This document shows, piece after piece, positions 4,335-16,840 of a DNA stretch of 22,326 bases (positions are counted from its first letter, which is position 1; each line of letters opens with the position of its first letter). The position numbers and the translations under genes are program-made. This DNA comes from a virus: the IMG/VR virus record IMGVR_UViG_3300042465_010132, positions 1 through 22,326 of that record, one strand, 5' to 3'. The notes below the pieces were generated by a model that was given only the letters and a program-made list of their open reading frames with translations, was not told where the DNA came from and made no database searches.

Positions 4335-5941
4335 GATCCCAACCCCATTAATTGTTCCCGCGTTTGCACCCTGCTTTGAATCACTGTTGGCGCGCTCACC
4401 TGGCCCCGCGTCACCAGTGCCCACACACCAGCACAGGCCGCATCAAATAAGTCATCACCGATTTTGATATCAGCCATTTTGTAACTTGAATAGCCAGCCT
4501 TGGTTGGCTCGCTCTTAATATTGGAAAGCTGGCGCACTAAGGTCATCCAGTCCGCATTCGTCGGATCTTCTTCATCAAAACTTGGAATGGCCGCTTGCCT
4601 GTTATGAAATGCAGCGCGCAGCGTGCTGGCCATGCTGTGTTTAACCATGCCTTGAAAGCGAATCGGCGCGAATGGCCACTCTGTCCAGGTAGTCGCCGTA
4701 CTCTGGCCATCACCAATAGTGCGGCGATCGATATGCGTTAAGCCTTTCGCATAAAGCCTATCGTTTAGGCTAGTCATCATGCCGATACCGAAGGCATCGC
4801 CCATGGCGTAATCCGGCCTAAAGTAGTCCCACAGGCCCAGCAGATCGTCTTCAACCACTCTGTCATCGGTGCCAGCTGGCCAAGTGCGGCAATAGATAAT
4901 CACCACGTAATTGCCAATCTGCTCTGTAACCACAAGCGCGGATTTAGACGCCGTGGCACTCTCGCCATGCCCGCTATGGTCATAACCAAAACTTAAAAGG
5001 CCACGCTTCTTATAACGCTGCCCAGGCAAAGGCCCCGCCGCCTGCAGATTAGCAGAGAGACCAGTAGCAATGGCAAGCCGGATATACTTTTCCCAGATGT
5101 AATTGGTGGAGCGGGTATTGATGCAGAGAAACTGCCGAATCCACTCTGATTCGGTCTGCTGAGCGCGCATATCCAGCGCCCAAGATTCATTCAAAATGCC
5201 CAGCTCTATACCCAGATAAATATCAACCGCCGATAGCATCACGTACTGGCCGTTATCTAACAGCGCCTGCAGCACATCAGCGCCTTTATAAACGCCAGTA
5301 ATACGGATTTGCGGCTGAAATTTAGTTGTGGAGTCTGCCCCTAAGCGGCGGGCGGAACCCAGCATGGGCAAGAAACGGCTCATTAAGCGGTCTTGCGGGC
5401 AATCATCCACTTCATCGATCGACGCAAAGCTGATGGCATCGCCATCAATCTGGCTCATGATCCCGAAAGCAGTGGCTTTGCTGCCATTGGCAAACTGGTA
5501 CTGCGTGTCCTTCATTTGCCTGCGGCCATTCTTTACGCCGATATAGGCCGTCAACATTTCAGAACGGCGGATGGCCTCTAGGTGATAGCCCAAACCAATC
5601 TGCGACTGCTGCAAACGAGGTGCCACAATCCCCTCTTCTTGGTGCGGCGTCGTCGCTAAAAACTGCAGCGCATAAAGCTCTTTAACCGTCGTTTTACCTG
5701 TACGGCGGCAAGACACGTCGATTGAATTTGGATTGTTGTCCATCTCAATGCATTTGAGCACCTGCATAGGGTCAAGCTCAACACCATGCACATGCTTATG
5801 CCACAAGGCGTGCGGGCGCATTCCGGTCGCCAAATCCACCCGGCCGTAACGCATGATTTCGATCTCGGCGCGGTTTTGAACAATCACCCGCTCCCGAGCG
5901 CTAATGCGCTCATTCGCCAAAGTGCTGCCCTGTTTCAGCAT
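4331..5941 (-). CDS. Phage terminase large subunit (ATPase-nuclease)
   Basis: A 536-residue packaging motor. The Walker A is S-C-R-R-T-G-K-T-T (residues 77-85, the arginine-rich terminase type) and the Walker B is FASIDEVD (172-179, D176/E177). The RNase H-like nuclease acidic residues are visible at D321 (GYDHSG), D382 (GDAFG) and a late Asp in 'GDDLFDAACAG'. It cuts concatemeric DNA and translocates it into the prohead through the portal. I chose the ATG at 5939-5941, which overlaps the end of the methyltransferase gene by 32 bases. A later Met 30 codons in is possible but would cut conserved-looking sequence. The length is normal for the family and no key residue is missing. Confidence 0.9.
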   Translation of the reverse strand: MLKQGSTLANERISARERVIVQNRAEIEIMRYGRVDLATGMRPHALWHKHVHGVELDPMQVLKCIEMDNNPNSIDVSCRRTGKTTVKELYALQFLATTPHQEEGIVAPRLQQSQIGLGYHLEAIRRSEMLTAYIGVKNGRRQMKDTQYQFANGSKATAFGIMSQIDGDAISFASIDEVDDCPQDRLMSRFLPMLGSARRLGADSTTKFQPQIRITGVYKGADVLQALLDNGQYVMLSAVDIYLGIELGILNESWALDMRAQQTESEWIRQFLCINTRSTNYIWEKYIRLAIATGLSANLQAAGPLPGQRYKKRGLLSFGYDHSGHGESATASKSALVVTEQIGNYVVIIYCRTWPAGTDDRVVEDDLLGLWDYFRPDYAMGDAFGIGMMTSLNDRLYAKGLTHIDRRTIGDGQSTATTWTEWPFAPIRFQGMVKHSMASTLRAAFHNRQAAIPSFDEEDPTNADWMTLVRQLSNIKSEPTKAGYSSYKMADIKIGDDLFDAACAGVWALVTRGQVSAPTVIQSRVQTREQLMGLGS

Positions 5942-7121
5942 GCACAGCCTGCAGGCCCGTAAAGGTTTGCCAGCGCTGCACAATCACATCCACATAGCGG
6001 GGGTCCAGCTCCATTAGCCGTGCATGGCGGCCCAGTTTCTGGCAGGCAATCAAAGTACTGCCGGAGCCGCCAAACAGGTCCAAGACAATATCGCCGCCAC
6101 GGCTGCTATTACTGATGGGATAACTCATCAGCTCGACGGGCTTCATCGTGGGATGGATATCATTGCGGGAGGGGCGATCAAACCGCCAGACTGTGGTTTG
6201 TTTGCGATCGGCATACCAGCGGTGAGAGCCGGTCGGCTTCCAACCATAGAGCACCGGCTCATGCTGCCAGTGATAATCCTGACGCCCCAATACCAGCGAT
6301 TGCTTTAGCCAAATGCAGCACTGCGCCAGCTTAAAGCCAGCATCTAGCATCGCCTTTCTAAAGTTCATACCCTCGCTATCGGCATGAAATACATAAAGGC
6401 CCGCGCCATCTTTAGCAAAGGCAAACATCCCCGCATAGGCATCGAGTAGGAAACGATAAAAATCACCATCTTTCATCGCATCATTTGCAATCGTCAGTTT
6501 GTCTTTAGTTTTACCCTCATAAGCCACGTTATAGGGCGGATCAGTCACCACCAGATCAGCTAAATAGCCATTCATCAATGTGGCGATATGATCCAAATTG
6601 GTGCTATCGCCACAAAGCAGACGGTGCGGCCCCAAAATCCACAGATCGCCAGGCTTGCTATATGCCTCATCAGGCACCGCTGGGGCTTCATCCTCATCAC
6701 ATAGCCCTTCTTCATTCAGCTCAGGCAAAAAGCGGGCCAGATCTTCTTCATCAAAGCCAATCAGCGATAGATCAAACTCCATATCCCGCAAAGCGCCCAG
6801 CTCAATTTCTAACAGGCCCTTATCCCAGCCAGCATTCATGGCCAGCTGGTTATCTGCAAGGATATAAGCCCGCTTCTGTGCCTCGCTCATATGCGATAGC
6901 TCAATCACGGGGATCTCGCTCATATTGCGCTTGGCAGCTGCCAGTACCCGGCCATGCCCCGCAATAATGCCGTTTGTGCCATCTACTAAAACAGGATTAG
7001 TCCAGCCAAACTCATCAAATGAGCGGCCAATTTGCTCGATCTGCTCTGCAGAATGGGTGCGGGCATTATTTGCGTAAGGGATCAGATCCGCGATCGGGCG
7101 GTATTCAATATAAAGCTTCAT
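5910..7121 (-). CDS. ParB-like domain fused to beta-class DNA methyltransferase (m6A/m4C)
   Basis: A 403-residue two-domain protein. Residues 1-110 are a ParB/Srx-like domain ('IADLIPYANNARTHS', 'VLVDGTNGIIAGHGRVLAA', with the G-H-G-R box at 55-58). Residues 155-390 are an adenine-N6 or cytosine-N4 methyltransferase of the beta order: motif IV T-DPPY (193-197) comes first and the SAM-binding FGGSGST (350-356) follows. 'HPTMKPVEL' is the usual motif X region. No restriction nuclease is next to it, so it is an orphan phage enzyme that may protect phage DNA or mark pac/cos sites. It sits inside the packaging operon, overlapping the gene before it as ATGA and the terminase after it. Target sequence and modified base cannot be read from the sequence. 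Confidence 0.88.
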   Translation of the reverse strand: MKLYIEYRPIADLIPYANNARTHSAEQIEQIGRSFDEFGWTNPVLVDGTNGIIAGHGRVLAAAKRNMSEIPVIELSHMSEAQKRAYILADNQLAMNAGWDKGLLEIELGALRDMEFDLSLIGFDEEDLARFLPELNEEGLCDEDEAPAVPDEAYSKPGDLWILGPHRLLCGDSTNLDHIATLMNGYLADLVVTDPPYNVAYEGKTKDKLTIANDAMKDGDFYRFLLDAYAGMFAFAKDGAGLYVFHADSEGMNFRKAMLDAGFKLAQCCIWLKQSLVLGRQDYHWQHEPVLYGWKPTGSHRWYADRKQTTVWRFDRPSRNDIHPTMKPVELMSYPISNSSRGGDIVLDLFGGSGSTLIACQKLGRHARLMELDPRYVDVIVQRWQTFTGLQAVHAETGQHFGE

Positions 7122-9752: not shown

Positions 9753-10757
9753 TTATACCTGCCCCATTCGTTTTAATAACTCAGAAGCTGGCGTACGAAT
9801 TTTTGCCAGTGGATTTGCCCGATCAATGGTTTCGGTCTTCTTTTTCATTGCCAGGTGCGTATAGATCCGGGTGGAGTCTGCTGACGAATGCCCCATCAGC
9901 TCGCCGGTTTGGTTTTCTGGCACATCGGATTCGGTCAGCTCGGTGCCAAAGCGGTGGCGCAAGGCGTGCGGGTGGAGCTGATCCTTTGGGACTCCTGCCT
10001 TTAGGCCGTGCCGAATCACAATACCCTGCACGCCTCGAGCAGAAAGCCGACGACGCTCGCCAATGAACTCATGCGCGGGAATGCGGCGGTTATTGGTAGA
10101 AACAAACAGCGGCTGATCGCCATTAGCCAGTGCCGAATCAATATCCACATGATCTTCGTGCTCCATATAAACCCGAAGCAAAAGCTCGGCCTCACGCGGC
10201 AGCGGCACCAGCCGCTCCTTCTCACCCTTCTCAAATGTCCGCACCGATAATCGCGGCTGGCCATCCACCGTAAACGGCACCAAGCTGCTGCGGTTTAATG
10301 CCACCAGCCCCGCCAGGCGCAGCCCGCAACCAATTAGCACTGCGAACAGCGCAGCATCACGAATCCCCTCAAAGGTTGCCAGATCCGGGGCAGAAACCAG
10401 CCGCTCTGCGTTTGATAGCTCAATGACTCGCGGTAGCGGTTTTCCTGATTTGGGGTATGGCAGGCTTTCTGCAGGGTTTTTCCCGCTGATATGACCAATG
10501 CGATGCAGCCATTTATAAAACTCACGGATGCAGGATATATACGGGATCCGGCTACGGGCATGCAGCTGAAATGTTTTATTTAAATACATGCCGGTAAATA
10601 GCAGCAGCTGCTGATCATCACACTCACGCGGATCTTGCCCCTTTAGCCAGGCACCGAAGCGCGACAAAATATCGCCATATGCCTGAATCGTCCGTACAGA
10701 GCAGCCATCATTCATGCGTTTGTACTCTAAAAAGCGATCCTTGAAAGAATCCATCAT
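9753..10757 (-). CDS. XerC/D-like tyrosine recombinase (integrase)
   Basis: A 334-residue recombinase with an N-terminal SAM-like core-binding domain (about 5-95) and a complete catalytic domain. R147 (GCGLRLAGL), a Lys in EKGEKER (K177/K180), H264-A-L-R267 (HPHALRH), H290 (MGHSS) and the nucleophile Y299 (TRIYTH) are all present. It breaks and rejoins DNA through a 3'-phosphotyrosine. The Xer-like look ('TRIYTHL', 'GHSSADST') differs from typical tRNA-targeting phage integrases, so it may act in element resolution as well as integration. The start is a tandem ATGATG (10752-10757), with only a weak GAG upstream. It is transcribed from a TATAAT promoter at 10821-10826 amid the CCGTGG repeats, with a nuclease gene behind it. 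Confidence 0.88.
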   Translation of the reverse strand: MMDSFKDRFLEYKRMNDGCSVRTIQAYGDILSRFGAWLKGQDPRECDDQQLLLFTGMYLNKTFQLHARSRIPYISCIREFYKWLHRIGHISGKNPAESLPYPKSGKPLPRVIELSNAERLVSAPDLATFEGIRDAALFAVLIGCGLRLAGLVALNRSSLVPFTVDGQPRLSVRTFEKGEKERLVPLPREAELLLRVYMEHEDHVDIDSALANGDQPLFVSTNNRRIPAHEFIGERRRLSARGVQGIVIRHGLKAGVPKDQLHPHALRHRFGTELTESDVPENQTGELMGHSSADSTRIYTHLAMKKKTETIDRANPLAKIRTPASELLKRMGQV

Positions 10758-10792: not shown

Positions 10793-11154
10793 CCGTGATC
10801 CGTGGACCAGCGCACACCACATTATAACCCTTTGTTTTTCTTGAATAAATCAATTAAATCAATCCACCACTAAGCCGTGGATTAGCTTTGCAATTCGTGG
10901 ACAGTTTGGCGTAATTTTTTATCTTCCGTGGATTTATATCTGCAATCCGTGGATTCTATTTTTTGCCTTTATCTATCTCTATCTCTTTATTTTAAAAAGA
11001 AAAAGAAAGGAATAAGGGTAAAAAAAAACCCAAATCAGAACAAAATTAAAACCGTGGGGAAAAGAGGGTAAACCGTGGAATTAAACATATAAACCGTGGG
11101 TATAGTTTTCTAATTAATCAAAGACTTAGCGGCCAAGAGTAGCAAAATCCACGG
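10793..11154 (+). repeat. Array of about ten CCGTGG iteron-like boxes, phased by 21 bp
   Basis: Exact CCGTGG starts at 10800, 10875, 10926, 10947, 11052, 11073 and 11094. Variants lie at 10793 (CCGTGA) and 10895 (TCGTGG), and one inverted copy at 11149 (CCACGG). Common contexts are AAACCGTGG and AATCCGTGGATT. Neighbour distances are 21 (10926-10947, 11052-11073, 11073-11094) and 105, which is five times 21 (10947-11052), so these boxes face the same side of the helix. The gap 10953-11050 is very AT-rich. The array covers a gene-free stretch upstream of the recombinase gene. Plasmid-type iterons, integrase arm sites and repressor operators all look like this. Confidence 0.8.
10821..10849 (-). 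promoter_or_regulatory. Promoter of the recombinase-nuclease operon
   Basis: A perfect TATAAT (minus strand, 10821-10826) is preceded after 17 bases by TTTATT (10844-10849), a poor -35. The predicted transcript starts near 10814 and runs straight through two CCGTG boxes (10793-10805), so a protein bound there could block it. Confidence 0.55.
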
Positions 11155-11733: not shown

Positions 11734-14700
11734 TTAGCGCTTGAGTTTCTTAATTTCCGCTGCAATATCAGCTTGCCTTGCGCTTTCATCCCACCCATCT
11801 GCGATGCACTCCAGCATAGCTACAGTGCGTGGCGATGCTGATTGTTGTGCCCACTGGCGATAACAAGAAGCAAGAGTCCGTTCCTGTTCCCCTCCCTCAA
11901 AGTACCCCTTAGAGTAGACACCTCGCATATTATTACGCTCAATCTTAATCCCATTTTCCAAGATTTCCGATGCAATCTGCTCGATGACTGAGGAAACTTC
12001 TGGTGGTGGCCAAGCTCCATTAACCAAGTTCGGGTTGGAGTGCGCGAGAAGTTGGCCTAAAAATTCGTCTGCGATGTCTCCACGACCGCTTGCTGCAGTC
12101 AACCTTCGAACTTCCAAAACCCAAGAAAAAAGAGTCGGCTCGTCGATGATGCCGTCCTGATCTCCAGGAATGATGTGGAAGGACTTGAGAAGTCGGTAAG
12201 AAAGCCTTGCTCTTGTCTGCTCGGCCTCTGACGGATTAGGATTCCTTTCCTCATTTTTACTAACAAAGACACTCTCAATGATGCTAACGTATTCGGCCGC
12301 CTCCTTCGCTAGCAGAGCATGAATGGAGAGCCCCTTGACGCTGCCTTCAATCAATGGAAGATAACTGTATTCACGCTTTGCTACCTCCACAAGTGCCACG
12401 TCATCTCGACCAGCAAGCGTCGTAAACACGCCACTAACAGCATAACTAAGCATTGAAGAAGCGTCACGTTGACTAGCAATCTCAGCGAGAGATTCGTCTA
12501 ATAAGTACAGTAACGTCTGCGAAGCAAGATCCTCAACGCGCTTATGAAGTGACATTATCACTTTCAAGCTGTGACCGACTCGGCGAAGTTCTGCTATTGC
12601 CTCTTGGAGGTTTTCAGTAGGCACATTCCAAGGCAAGGAACCAACCTCACGCCAGTAGATATCTGCAAACTCTTGGCCCAAGGATTGAACAAATGCCCAC
12701 GTCTCGACATCGTTCGACCAGTTAGCGAGAAGCCAAGCTAGGTCTTTCAATGATTTACAGCGCGGAATAACGAATTCTGTGAAGTAGCTAACCCAAGCCT
12801 CACCATCGCGACGCCTCAAGCTACCAGAAATTAGGCATGCCAAGCCATAGCACTCTCCGCCAGCATCCATGAGGGAAAAAATGAGATTGGCCGCATCGTT
12901 GAAAGGCAGCTCAAGAGCATCGAATGCTTGCCCCATCTGGCGAGGCATGTTGACGGTCGTAGCCAATCGCAGAAGTCCTGGAATACCTAGTTCAGCATGA
13001 ACACGGCGGAGTTCCGCAATCCTAATTACTTCAGCATCCTCTAACATGGTGTTCAAATTTCCACCCAAATGCGGGGTCCATGCATCAAACAGGTGGCGAA
13101 CCTGTGCGACTAAATCAGAGGGCCGGTAAATGTCCACCAACTGCTTAAGACGCGCCAGTTCCGCCCCCTTAAGTGACCAATCGGTATCCTGAAACGCTTC
13201 TTGATGCGCAGTAAAATCTCTGATTTTATGCCAAAGAACGCTGCCTTCAGGTTTTGAATAAAGCTTTAGATTAACCTCGAACAAATCGATCAAGCGCTCT
13301 CTATTTTGGGGCTGCAAGTTATCGAGATGGTCGACAAGTATGGTTACACGTTGCTCTTCTTGATGCGCAAGCTCAATCACTCGATTCAAAGCGCGAGTCT
13401 CTGCCTCCCAAACTAGGCCGAAAGTAATCTCTTCAGGCTCAAGAGATTCCGTATCACGTAATTTGGGTCGCGCTGTAGGTTCACTTATATCGTGCGTGCG
13501 TGGCATCAGTAGGAGTAGCAGCTCCCACGCAACATCTGGTAATCCACTAATTAAGTGGTCAATAGCAAGAAATCGTCGCTTCAGGTCAGCGTTGGTATTA
13601 GGTGACCATGCCAAGAAAATTGTCCTCAAACTACTCAGAGGACGGTTTCCATTCTTAGATTCCTTATTTGGGTCGATAGCAGCAAGCTTTCCTAAAACGA
13701 AAGTAACCCGAAGCAATAGTTTTGGATCCCACGCCAAGACTTCAAGAGCCCATAATACGTAGATATGCGGACTGTCGTTATTAAAGAAATAGTTATTATT
13801 ATTTGACTCTTGAAAAAGACCGAGTGCATCGTCAGCTTGGCCCTCGAGACTCTTCTCGAGGGCTTCCAAGAAAGGGATGGGAGCAGCCTCTGCAACTGCT
13901 GTCAATTGCGGCAGGATTGGAAGTATCCAGCGATGATTATGTGCGAAGTTAGGAAGAGAACGAATAACGTCATCGACGTATCGTTGAGGTGTTGTTCCGC
14001 TCAATTGAAGACCACCAACATCTGGCATAGCGGCGAACAACATCAGGGTATATGCAAGACCATCTCGCAGCCAGCTACTGTAATCCGCTGGAGCACGATA
14101 GCTAAAGGAAAACTTCTCTTCTGTACTAGGTTTAGCAACTTCGTGGCCTAGGACGCGAATTGCTGCCGCCTTGAGACGCTGAAGGTCGTTTTCATCAATG
14201 AGATGCCCATAGTGCTGGAAGGCATCAACAGCTGCTCTTACCTGCCAAACTTGCTCCACCATGTCAAAAGGTGGATCTGACATGTTCAGAGTCTGCCTGA
14301 TTTGCGCTTCTACAGCGACGTAGTCCGTACCTCCAGCGAGACTTGCGACAACCGTCTTGTCAAGCTCCGAGTCAGTACTCCATCCACCTGCGAGTAACGC
14401 AGGTTTGAGCTGTACAGCCAGATGGGCCCATTCAGCGTTTGCTTCAATACCGGCTGAAGGATGCAGGCGTCGAAGAATAGTAAGGCTTCGACCACATTTT
14501 TGCGCCAAAACATAACCATCTTGACGGTCAATGTTCATTGACTCCATAGCCTCGGCCATAGCGCTAGCAGTAGGCCTCTTCAGGAGAGGAAGCCCTTGGC
14601 GCTTACGCTGCTGACCAGTTGCGGCGGTCAGAGTCGGCCCCTTCTGTCCGAGCGGACCGGCGAGCTTTTCCGCTTCTTTCCATACGAGGAAGGTCATGTC

Positions 14701-15498
14701 CTTCATCCCCATAAGGAATTGTGCGGCGTCATAAGTCTCGACAACCATCGTCCGAGCTTCAAGCGTCTTACGAACTTCCTCTGGTGCAGTGCGAATGACC
14801 GCAACAGCAAAAGCAATAACCTCTTCTGCCGAGTCCGCAGCCAAAGTGAAGTTTTGTGGGCCTCCGCTCAGCACCTGCAGAAGCTGCACAGCTTCACTCT
14901 CACGCCCACACAAGAGCATTTTTTCTGTGAGCGCAGGCTTAAAACTCCCGCTATAGCACTCCCAAAACTCATCCGTACTAAGTGCGCCGTTACGAGGCGC
15001 CTTTTCAAGAATGTTCCTCGCGTATCGAGCAGCCACAGCGGGCTTCTCTTCAAGCCAGTTCGCTAGGACAGTACCATCGATGAAGTGAATCTCTCGCCAT
15101 TTCCCTTCAGCGTTTCGGTCAGCTAACCAAGTGACCAAAGTTTCCTGTGGTGTATCCCAGGAGTGTAGATTAAGCATCACGAAGGCATTCTCGGTCATTA
15201 CATGTTCCGGTGTCTTCAATGTACGCTTATCGTAATCGCTTTGTGCCTTAGTCTTGCCAGCTGATGTTGTACCGAACTCCCATTTGGATTTACCGGCTGG
15301 AACCCTAGAAACGGCCTTTGTTGTCTCTAAGTCGCCATCAAAACCTCGCAAGGTTCCTGAGCTTTGACCTGGAAACCTAAAGTTATTTACATCCGCGACG
15401 GTCGCACGAATAAGGTTGCCGACAAGGTCTACGAAGAGCTCGCGGGCATCAGTCCGGCGACTCCAGGTCTTCAGGTCTTCGTCGGTAATCCATTTCAT
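11734..15498 (-). CDS. Giant 1254-aa protein, nuclease-like N-terminus plus long helical region, putative anti-phage effector
   Basis: I know this as a widespread but unnamed family. Residues 1-165 form a module with G52-F-D54-G, then 'VPAGKSKWE74FG' and 'K84AQSDYDKRT'. The D...E...K set resembles a PD-(D/E)xK nuclease, followed by 'VTWLADRN..GKWREIHFIDGTVLANWL', a strand-helix pattern. Residues 195-350 read like an NTPase fold whose P-loop position is 'LAADSAEEVIAF', so ATP binding is probably lost. The remaining 900 residues look like an alpha-solenoid (repeated L/A-rich helical pairs) suitable for sensing a large ligand. The start is the ATG at 15496-15498 with AGGAAG 8 bases upstream. It is alone, bracketed by direct repeats, in a tRNA-linked island. 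All this fits a single-gene defence system, but the function is inferred. Confidence 0.7.
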   Translation of the reverse strand: MKWITDEDLKTWSRRTDARELFVDLVGNLIRATVADVNNFRFPGQSSGTLRGFDGDLETTKAVSRVPAGKSKWEFGTTSAGKTKAQSDYDKRTLKTPEHVMTENAFVMLNLHSWDTPQETLVTWLADRNAEGKWREIHFIDGTVLANWLEEKPAVAARYARNILEKAPRNGALSTDEFWECYSGSFKPALTEKMLLCGRESEAVQLLQVLSGGPQNFTLAADSAEEVIAFAVAVIRTAPEEVRKTLEARTMVVETYDAAQFLMGMKDMTFLVWKEAEKLAGPLGQKGPTLTAATGQQRKRQGLPLLKRPTASAMAEAMESMNIDRQDGYVLAQKCGRSLTILRRLHPSAGIEANAEWAHLAVQLKPALLAGGWSTDSELDKTVVASLAGGTDYVAVEAQIRQTLNMSDPPFDMVEQVWQVRAAVDAFQHYGHLIDENDLQRLKAAAIRVLGHEVAKPSTEEKFSFSYRAPADYSSWLRDGLAYTLMLFAAMPDVGGLQLSGTTPQRYVDDVIRSLPNFAHNHRWILPILPQLTAVAEAAPIPFLEALEKSLEGQADDALGLFQESNNNNYFFNNDSPHIYVLWALEVLAWDPKLLLRVTFVLGKLAAIDPNKESKNGNRPLSSLRTIFLAWSPNTNADLKRRFLAIDHLISGLPDVAWELLLLLMPRTHDISEPTARPKLRDTESLEPEEITFGLVWEAETRALNRVIELAHQEEQRVTILVDHLDNLQPQNRERLIDLFEVNLKLYSKPEGSVLWHKIRDFTAHQEAFQDTDWSLKGAELARLKQLVDIYRPSDLVAQVRHLFDAWTPHLGGNLNTMLEDAEVIRIAELRRVHAELGIPGLLRLATTVNMPRQMGQAFDALELPFNDAANLIFSLMDAGGECYGLACLISGSLRRRDGEAWVSYFTEFVIPRCKSLKDLAWLLANWSNDVETWAFVQSLGQEFADIYWREVGSLPWNVPTENLQEAIAELRRVGHSLKVIMSLHKRVEDLASQTLLYLLDESLAEIASQRDASSMLSYAVSGVFTTLAGRDDVALVEVAKREYSYLPLIEGSVKGLSIHALLAKEAAEYVSIIESVFVSKNEERNPNPSEAEQTRARLSYRLLKSFHIIPGDQDGIIDEPTLFSWVLEVRRLTAASGRGDIADEFLGQLLAHSNPNLVNGAWPPPEVSSVIEQIASEILENGIKIERNNMRGVYSKGYFEGGEQERTLASCYRQWAQQSASPRTVAMLECIADGWDESARQADIAAEIKKLKR

Positions 15499-16734: not shown

Positions 16735-16788
16735 GACTTAAAATCCCTCGCTTATGGCGTATCGGTTCAAGTCCGATCCCGGGCACCA
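16735..16788 (+). other. 3' fragment of tRNA-Leu(UAA): attachment site (att) at the island end
   Basis: The sequence from the anticodon loop onward is a perfect tRNA-Leu: loop CTTAAAA with anticodon TAA (16737-16743), stem TCCCT, long variable arm CGCTTATGGCG, T-arm ATCGG-TTCAAGT-CCGAT, acceptor CCGGGC, discriminator A and CCA (16786-16788). The 5' half is absent: the bases before 16735 do not pair with the anticodon stem and no D-arm exists. So identity begins in the anticodon arm, the usual crossover region for tRNA-targeting integrases. The gene itself is not functional here. Confidence 0.88.
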
Positions 16789-16803
16789 CAGCAAAATATT
16801 AAG

Positions 16804-16840
16804 CCCGCATCCTCACGGATTAGCGGGTTTTTTGTTTTTT
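16804..16840 (+). terminator. Rho-independent terminator after the tRNA fragment
   Basis: The stem CCCGC/GCGGG (16804-16808, 16823-16827) with inner ATCC/GGAT is followed by TTTTTTGTTTTTT. It would have ended the original tRNA-Leu transcript and marks the start of host sequence. Confidence 0.85.

What the first reader, a model, noticed from the sequence alone, without database searches (positions are those of the whole stretch)
10793..11154. Helically phased CCGTGG iteron array upstream of the recombinase gene
About ten copies of CCGTGG (nine on the plus strand, one inverted) lie in a gene-free, AT-rich 360-base stretch. Key spacings are 21, 105 (five times 21), 21 and 21 bases. Same-face phasing is a hallmark of iteron origins and of arrays bound cooperatively. 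An AT-rich gap of about 100 bases inside the array resembles an unwinding element. The array also overlaps the start of the recombinase transcript, so the bound protein could control integration. No standard phage feature explains it, and no Rep gene is visible nearby.
Basis: partly seen in the sequence, partly recalled or inferred. Interest (0 to 1): 0.72.

Follow-up and report, generated by a model that had tools for sequence, protein, structure and literature searches.

The report
Phage replication origin tracking its primase
The repeat array is almost certainly the replication origin of a temperate phage; in dozens of related phages its repeats change in step with a few residues in a DNA-binding domain of the phage primase-helicase, so its partner is the primase and not the neighbouring recombinase.

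Summary
The array is real: 7 direct and 1 inverted exact CCGTGG in 355 bp (local shuffles: mean 0.11, maximum 2), with spacings 21-105-21-21. The same array lies in relatives upstream of a XerD-like recombinase, with an AT-rich gap of conserved length (mostly 101-105 bp) and an IHF-consensus site. The recombinase is not its partner. (1) The true integrases are other genes, and prophages keep the array intact. (2) The homologous array lies 3' of the same primase gene (phrog_5629) in P2-like Burkholderia phages and most primase-bearing viral contigs, without this recombinase. (3) Four scattered phages whose primase was replaced by another family (phrog_47) have entirely different repeats, although their recombinases are ordinary. 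(4) In primases about 97% identical, wing residues of the predicted C-terminal winged helix covary with the repeat: Arg-Tyr with GCCCC (10/10 called arrays), Pro-Tyr with GCCAC (21/21), Ala/Ser/Gly-His with CCACGG. Best reading: an iteron origin opened by the phage primase-helicase, working like P4 alpha/ori and the PICI origin. The window lacks the primase because the contig is a fragment. Initiation and binding are inferred, not shown.

The parts
10793..11154 (.). iteron array, putative phage replication origin
   Evidence: conserved in relatives
10800..10805 (+). iteron CCGTGG, recombinase-proximal (preceded by CCGTGA at 10794)
10863..10880 (.). degenerate inverted iteron pair (TCCACC at 10863-10868 / CCGTGG at 10875-10880); a clean palindrome CCACGG-N5-CCGTGG stands here in many relatives
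10895..10900 (+). iteron with one mismatch, TCGTGG
10926..10952 (+). two iterons 21 bp apart (10926, 10947)
10953..11051 (.). AT-rich gap with a pyrimidine tract followed by a purine tract, putative unwinding element; spacing across it 105 here, 101-105 in 23 of 39 distinct arrays
   Evidence: hairpin not better than shuffles here
11052..11099 (+). three iterons 21 bp apart (11052, 11073, 11094)
11116..11128 (+). perfect IHF consensus AATCAAAGACTTA (WATCAANNNNTTR), same place in relatives
   Evidence: sequence
11149..11154 (-). outer inverted iteron, 55 bp from the last direct copy as in relatives
9753..10757 (-). XerD-like tyrosine recombinase, catalytic residues invariant; neighbour of the origin, not the integrase
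16735..16836 (.). attR: copy of the 3' part of tRNA-Leu(taa); prophage right end, host DNA beyond
11734..15498 (-). cargo gene of 1254 aa (phrog_18693, function unknown) inserted between array and attR, absent from the two close relatives

Best explanation
The array is the replication origin of a temperate phage. After excision and circularisation, the phage primase-helicase (about 920 aa; CHC2/Toprim half, helicase half, C-terminal winged helix; phrog_5629) binds the 21-bp-phased iterons on both sides of the AT-rich gap through its C-terminal domain. IHF bends the outer flank, the AT-rich gap opens, and the same protein loads as helicase and primes both strands. Shown by comparison: conserved anatomy, linkage to the primase and not to the recombinase, repeats that are replaced when the primase is replaced, and wing residues that covary with repeat bases. 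Inferred: physical binding, opening, helicase loading, priming, and IHF occupancy.
For: Array anatomy kept in L008, L009, L010, yong1 and many viral contigs; gap length clusters at 101-105; perfect IHF consensus in a fixed 45-bp slot in 15 of 82 loci against 0.1% of control windows. Primase gene on the far side of the array in most loci. The homologous array is 3' of the same primase in P2-like phages Carl1, KS5, Mana and AP3, without this recombinase, and the array's IHF element is found 3' of the primase in 69 of 80 viral contigs, 66 without the recombinase. The four G-type arrays (TTGCACCC) have a phrog_47 primase instead and sit in three separate places of the recombinase tree next to A-type phages. 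Iteron type covaries with primase wing residues: RY with GCCCC 10, PY with GCCAC 21, no crossover among called arrays; S-N with CCACAG in two separate primase clades and S-R with CCACCA. The C-terminal domain is predicted to be a winged helix, pLDDT 87.6, with best PDB match TcpK, which reads tandem 9-bp repeats with its beta-wing. One such array per host genome.
Against: No replication assay or binding data. The primase is not on this contig; it is inferred from relatives (recombinase 97% identical; aligned blocks mostly 87-95% DNA identity). Foldseek matches are weak in E-value (0.011). Array and primase are adjacent, so a swap could reflect block transfer of linked DNA. Covariation counts include close relatives; exceptions exist (L132, L138, L134/135/207, L294); 23 of 54 PY/RY arrays had fewer than 3 callable iterons. 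GC skew gave no origin signal. KS14 and FLC5 have the primase but no array was recognised.
Confidence: 0.85

Rival explanations
1. The array is a recombination or resolution site (attP arms, or a dif/cer-like site) of the adjacent XerD-like recombinase.
For: Recombinase next to the array in many phages with invariant catalytic residues; inverted iteron pairs with a short spacer exist.
Against: Integration is done by other enzymes (separate Tyr integrase at tRNA-Leu, or Ser integrase at tRNA-Asn) and the array stays whole inside prophages. Arrays exist without the recombinase. Repeats follow primase replacement, not recombinase descent.
Confidence: 0.07
2. The array is an operator: a repressor binds it to control the recombinase gene.
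For: It ends about 40 bp before the recombinase start, and inverted pairs near a gene start resemble autoregulated iteron operators (general knowledge).
Against: About 1-1.5 kb separates array and recombinase in L159, L167, L170, L173; P2-like phages keep the array without this gene; 21-bp phasing on both sides of a fixed AT-rich gap plus an IHF site is more than an operator needs. A secondary regulatory role is not excluded.
Confidence: 0.05
3. The array is a partition or incompatibility site (parS-like) of a plasmid-like prophage.
For: L029 has a ParA-like gene close to the array; KS14 is a plasmid prophage (PMC3091744).
Against: The window-type prophages and L010 integrate at tRNA genes, and no ParA/ParB neighbour was noted beside their arrays (not searched systematically). 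KS14 and FLC5 carry ParA but no recognised array.
Confidence: 0.03

Closest known systems
PICI / SaPI origins (pri-rep-ori)
   Same: Two iteron sets flank an AT-rich region just 3' of the primase/initiator gene (PMC6092414).
   Different: Found here in full-size temperate phages, with an IHF site, a gap of conserved length and often a XerD-like recombinase neighbour; [quoted passage not shown]
Satellite phage P4 alpha protein and its ori/crr
   Same: One protein with Toprim primase, helicase and a winged-helix domain that binds origin repeats (summarised in PMC4234260).
   Different: phmmer and hmmsearch against PDB sequences found no relative of the primase or of its C-terminal domain, and the P4 origin-binding domain was not among the 50 best PDB fold matches; anatomy and iterons differ.
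Iteron plasmids with Rep_3-type initiators (R6K, pSC101, P1)
   Same: About 21-bp phasing, AT-rich unwinding region, IHF, inverted half-iterons (general knowledge; review PMC4980987 listed, not read).
   Different: No Rep_3 gene; the candidate initiator is a primase-helicase.
TcpK / oriT repeats of pCW3
   Same: Best structural match of the C-terminal domain; winged helix reading tandem 9-bp repeats with the beta-wing (PMC6137059).
   Different: Conjugation accessory protein, not an initiator; low sequence identity (5-7%).

Membership tests
[quoted passage not shown]
PICI-type origin | Located 3' of the primase/initiator gene | tested here: met
   in relatives; in the window type it is 3' of the primase only across attP in the excised circle
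PICI-type origin | Carried by a phage-dependent satellite without a full set of its own virion genes | tested here: not met
   head and portal genes in the window; P2-like carriers are complete phages
[quoted passage not shown]
   Toprim/CHC2, winged helix predicted; helicase only by phage annotations and a GxGKST-like motif in the sequence, no Pfam helicase hit
P4 alpha/ori | Homology to the alpha protein | tested here: not met
   no PDB sequence match; P4 domain not among the listed fold matches
Iteron plasmid origin (Rep_3 class) | Cognate Rep_3 initiator encoded beside the origin | tested here: not met
   no such gene found in the window; primase instead in relatives
attP of a tyrosine integrase | Site is split by integration | tested here: not met
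   array intact in prophages; attL/attR at tRNA-Leu
Any replication origin | Supports autonomous replication with its initiator | not testable with these tools
   needs a bench assay

The most novel reading that the evidence does not exclude
A widespread family of full-size temperate phages uses a PICI-like primase-bound iteron origin in which a few wing residues of the primase's winged helix (the pair after R-R-V) set the iteron sequence, so that origins switch specificity by a few substitutions plus concerted change of all repeats; a BRO-N protein carrying the same C-terminal domain may regulate such an origin in trans.
Probability: 0.45. Interest if true: 0.76.

Novelty: new variant of a known kind. 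Interest (0 to 1): 0.64.

Why it matters
It names the likely origin and initiator for a large group of temperate phages (P2-like Burkholderia phages and many unclassified ones) for which none was found in the papers searched. It extends an origin plan that was published as unique to phage-inducible islands. It supplies a natural series of about 10 repeat types matched to small changes in one domain, which makes the question of how an initiator and a dozen repeats change specificity together directly testable.

Tried and rejected
DNA similarity of the region to plasmid and phage records: nothing beyond short chance matches. attP or integrase reading: rejected by att mapping. Recombinase-array partnership: rejected by tree and swap evidence. 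Cumulative GC skew as an origin signal: no clear turning point. Conserved hairpin in the gap: folding no better than shuffles in the window and L010, strong in only one of five different sequences. Overall drop of C-terminal against N-terminal identity between different-iteron primases: small and not decisive. Many of the 119 pattern hits are coding or simple repeats and were discarded. PDB sequence search with the primase: no relative.

Full report
Observation. CCGTGG occurs at 10800, 10875, 10926, 10947, 11052, 11073 and 11094 on the plus strand and at 11149 on the minus strand, with two one-mismatch copies at 10794 and 10895. In 5000 dinucleotide shuffles of the stretch the mean was 0.11 copies and no 21-bp pair arose; in 300 shuffles of the whole window no 361-bp stretch held more than 3 copies against 8 observed.

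What the window is. The contig is an IMG/VR record of 22,326 bases. It matches two metagenome-assembled bacterial genomes, L008 (Janthinobacterium, genome G001) and L009 (Lac Pavin, G002), over the phage part and over flanking host genes. In G001 and G002 the prophage lies between tRNA-Leu(taa) and a copy of its 3' part; the same copy is at window 16735-16836, so the prophage ends there and the rest is host DNA. A separate tyrosine integrase of 352-354 aa stands at the tRNA end. The recombinase beside the array is therefore not the integrase, and the array lies whole inside the prophage, 5.6 kb from attR in the window.

Conservation. Of the viral contigs found with a three-copy 21-bp pattern, seven carry a homologous recombinase beside or near an array of the same plan. 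Searching with the recombinase family gave 80 loci, most with the same plan: outer inverted copy, IHF consensus about 24 bp inside it, direct copies 21 bp apart, an AT-rich gap with a pyrimidine then a purine tract, further copies and often a palindrome. Gap length is 101-105 in 23 of 39 distinct arrays, with smaller groups at 114-117 and 121-125. A perfect IHF consensus lies in the same 45-bp slot in 15 of 82 loci against 0.1% of control windows. Repetition at lag 21 stands out in both sets (0.43-0.46 against about 0.27 at other lags).

Which protein belongs to it. In most loci a primase gene (phrog_5629) lies on the far side of the array, and a serine integrase follows the recombinase. In the window type the primase is 33 kb away on the linear prophage but on the array side of attP, so it faces the array in the excised circle. 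Cargo is found either between primase and array (L134, L143, L138, L207) or between array and recombinase (L159, L167, L170, L173), so the array is an autonomous site.

Three lines tie it to the primase. First, P2-like Burkholderia phages Carl1, KS5, Mana and AP3 carry a homologous primase and, just 3' of it, the same array plan, but no such recombinase there. Among 80 viral contigs found with the primase, 69 have the array's IHF element 3' of it and 66 of these lack the recombinase in the stretch held. Second, four phages (L161, L162, L171, L208) have a different primase (phrog_47) and entirely different repeats (TTGCACCC), while their recombinases sit in three separate parts of the tree beside phages with CCACGG repeats. 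Third, repeat type varies with residues in the primase's C-terminal domain: R-R-V-[A/S/G]-H with CCACGG, P-Y with GCCAC, R-Y with GCCCC, N-Y with TCCACGAG, S-N with CCACAG (also in L176, which the primase tree puts in another clade), S-R with CCACCA. Among arrays with at least three callable iterons the split is 10 RY/GCCCC and 21 PY/GCCAC with no crossover (Fisher 2e-8; rows are related, so the p-value overstates). The closest RY/PY pair is 97% identical, with several C-terminal positions changed (802, 806, 808, 829, 883), so residue 883 alone is not proven to be the switch. Exceptions are L132, L138, mixed arrays L134/L135/L207, and L294.

Structure. AlphaFold2 of that domain (first row L213) gives a confident winged helix (pLDDT 87.6); the covarying residues lie in the second wing strand. 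The best PDB fold match is TcpK (E 0.011, probability 1.00), which reads tandem 9-bp repeats chiefly with its beta-wing (PMC6137059). The P4 origin-binding domain was not among the listed matches.

Mechanism. I propose that the primase-helicase binds the iterons by its wing, IHF bends the flank, the AT-rich gap melts, and the bound protein loads and primes. Binding, melting and priming are inference. Skew analysis and hairpin folding gave no support.

Comparison. [quoted passage not shown] P4 alpha is the mechanistic parallel (PMC4234260). Searches of the held papers found no description of this origin: the KS5/KS14/KL3 genome paper has no hit for iteron or primase, the AP3 paper none for iteron or origin of replication, and a search for Burkholderia, Peduovir and iteron gave nothing. 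Subscription papers were not searched, so prior description cannot be excluded. I rate it a new variant of a known kind.

Noticed in passing
L008:11510-12418 (+): A 302-aa protein joins a BRO-N (anti-repressor type) domain to the primase's C-terminal domain; it may bind the same iterons in trans. The window has a methyltransferase gene (5910-7121) at the matching place instead.
   Followed up: partly
window 11734-15498: 1254-aa gene of unknown function (phrog_18693; no Pfam or PADLOC hit) inserted between array and attR, absent from L008 and L009; looks like cargo, possibly defence.
   Followed up: partly
window 9753-10757 and homologues: XerD-like recombinase with full catalytic set, kept beside the origin in many phages yet not the integrase; a multimer-resolution role is a guess, its core site was not found.
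   Followed up: partly
L161, L162, L171, L208: Replication module swap: phrog_47 primase with TTGCACCC repeats replaces phrog_5629 with CCACGG repeats while the recombinase and serine integrase stay.
   Followed up: yes
L145:3361-6225, L149:2965-5847: Primases that match both the phrog_5629-type query (about 1000 bits) and the phrog_47-type query (about 118 bits), with unusual CCACCA repeats; possible mosaics.
   Followed up: no
L229 (KS14) and L232 (FLC5): Phages with the primase but no recognised array; KS14 has a Rep gene (gp37), ParA and its own AACCGGGG repeats near 28.6 kb, so may carry two replicons.
   Followed up: partly
L011 (Microcystis phage vB_MaeS-yong1): Recorded host is a cyanobacterium, but its primase (53%), recombinase (41%) and array belong with phages of proteobacteria; the host may deserve a check.
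   Followed up: no
L140, L141, L175, L179, L188: Recombinase homologues for which no clear repeat motif was found upstream.
   Followed up: no
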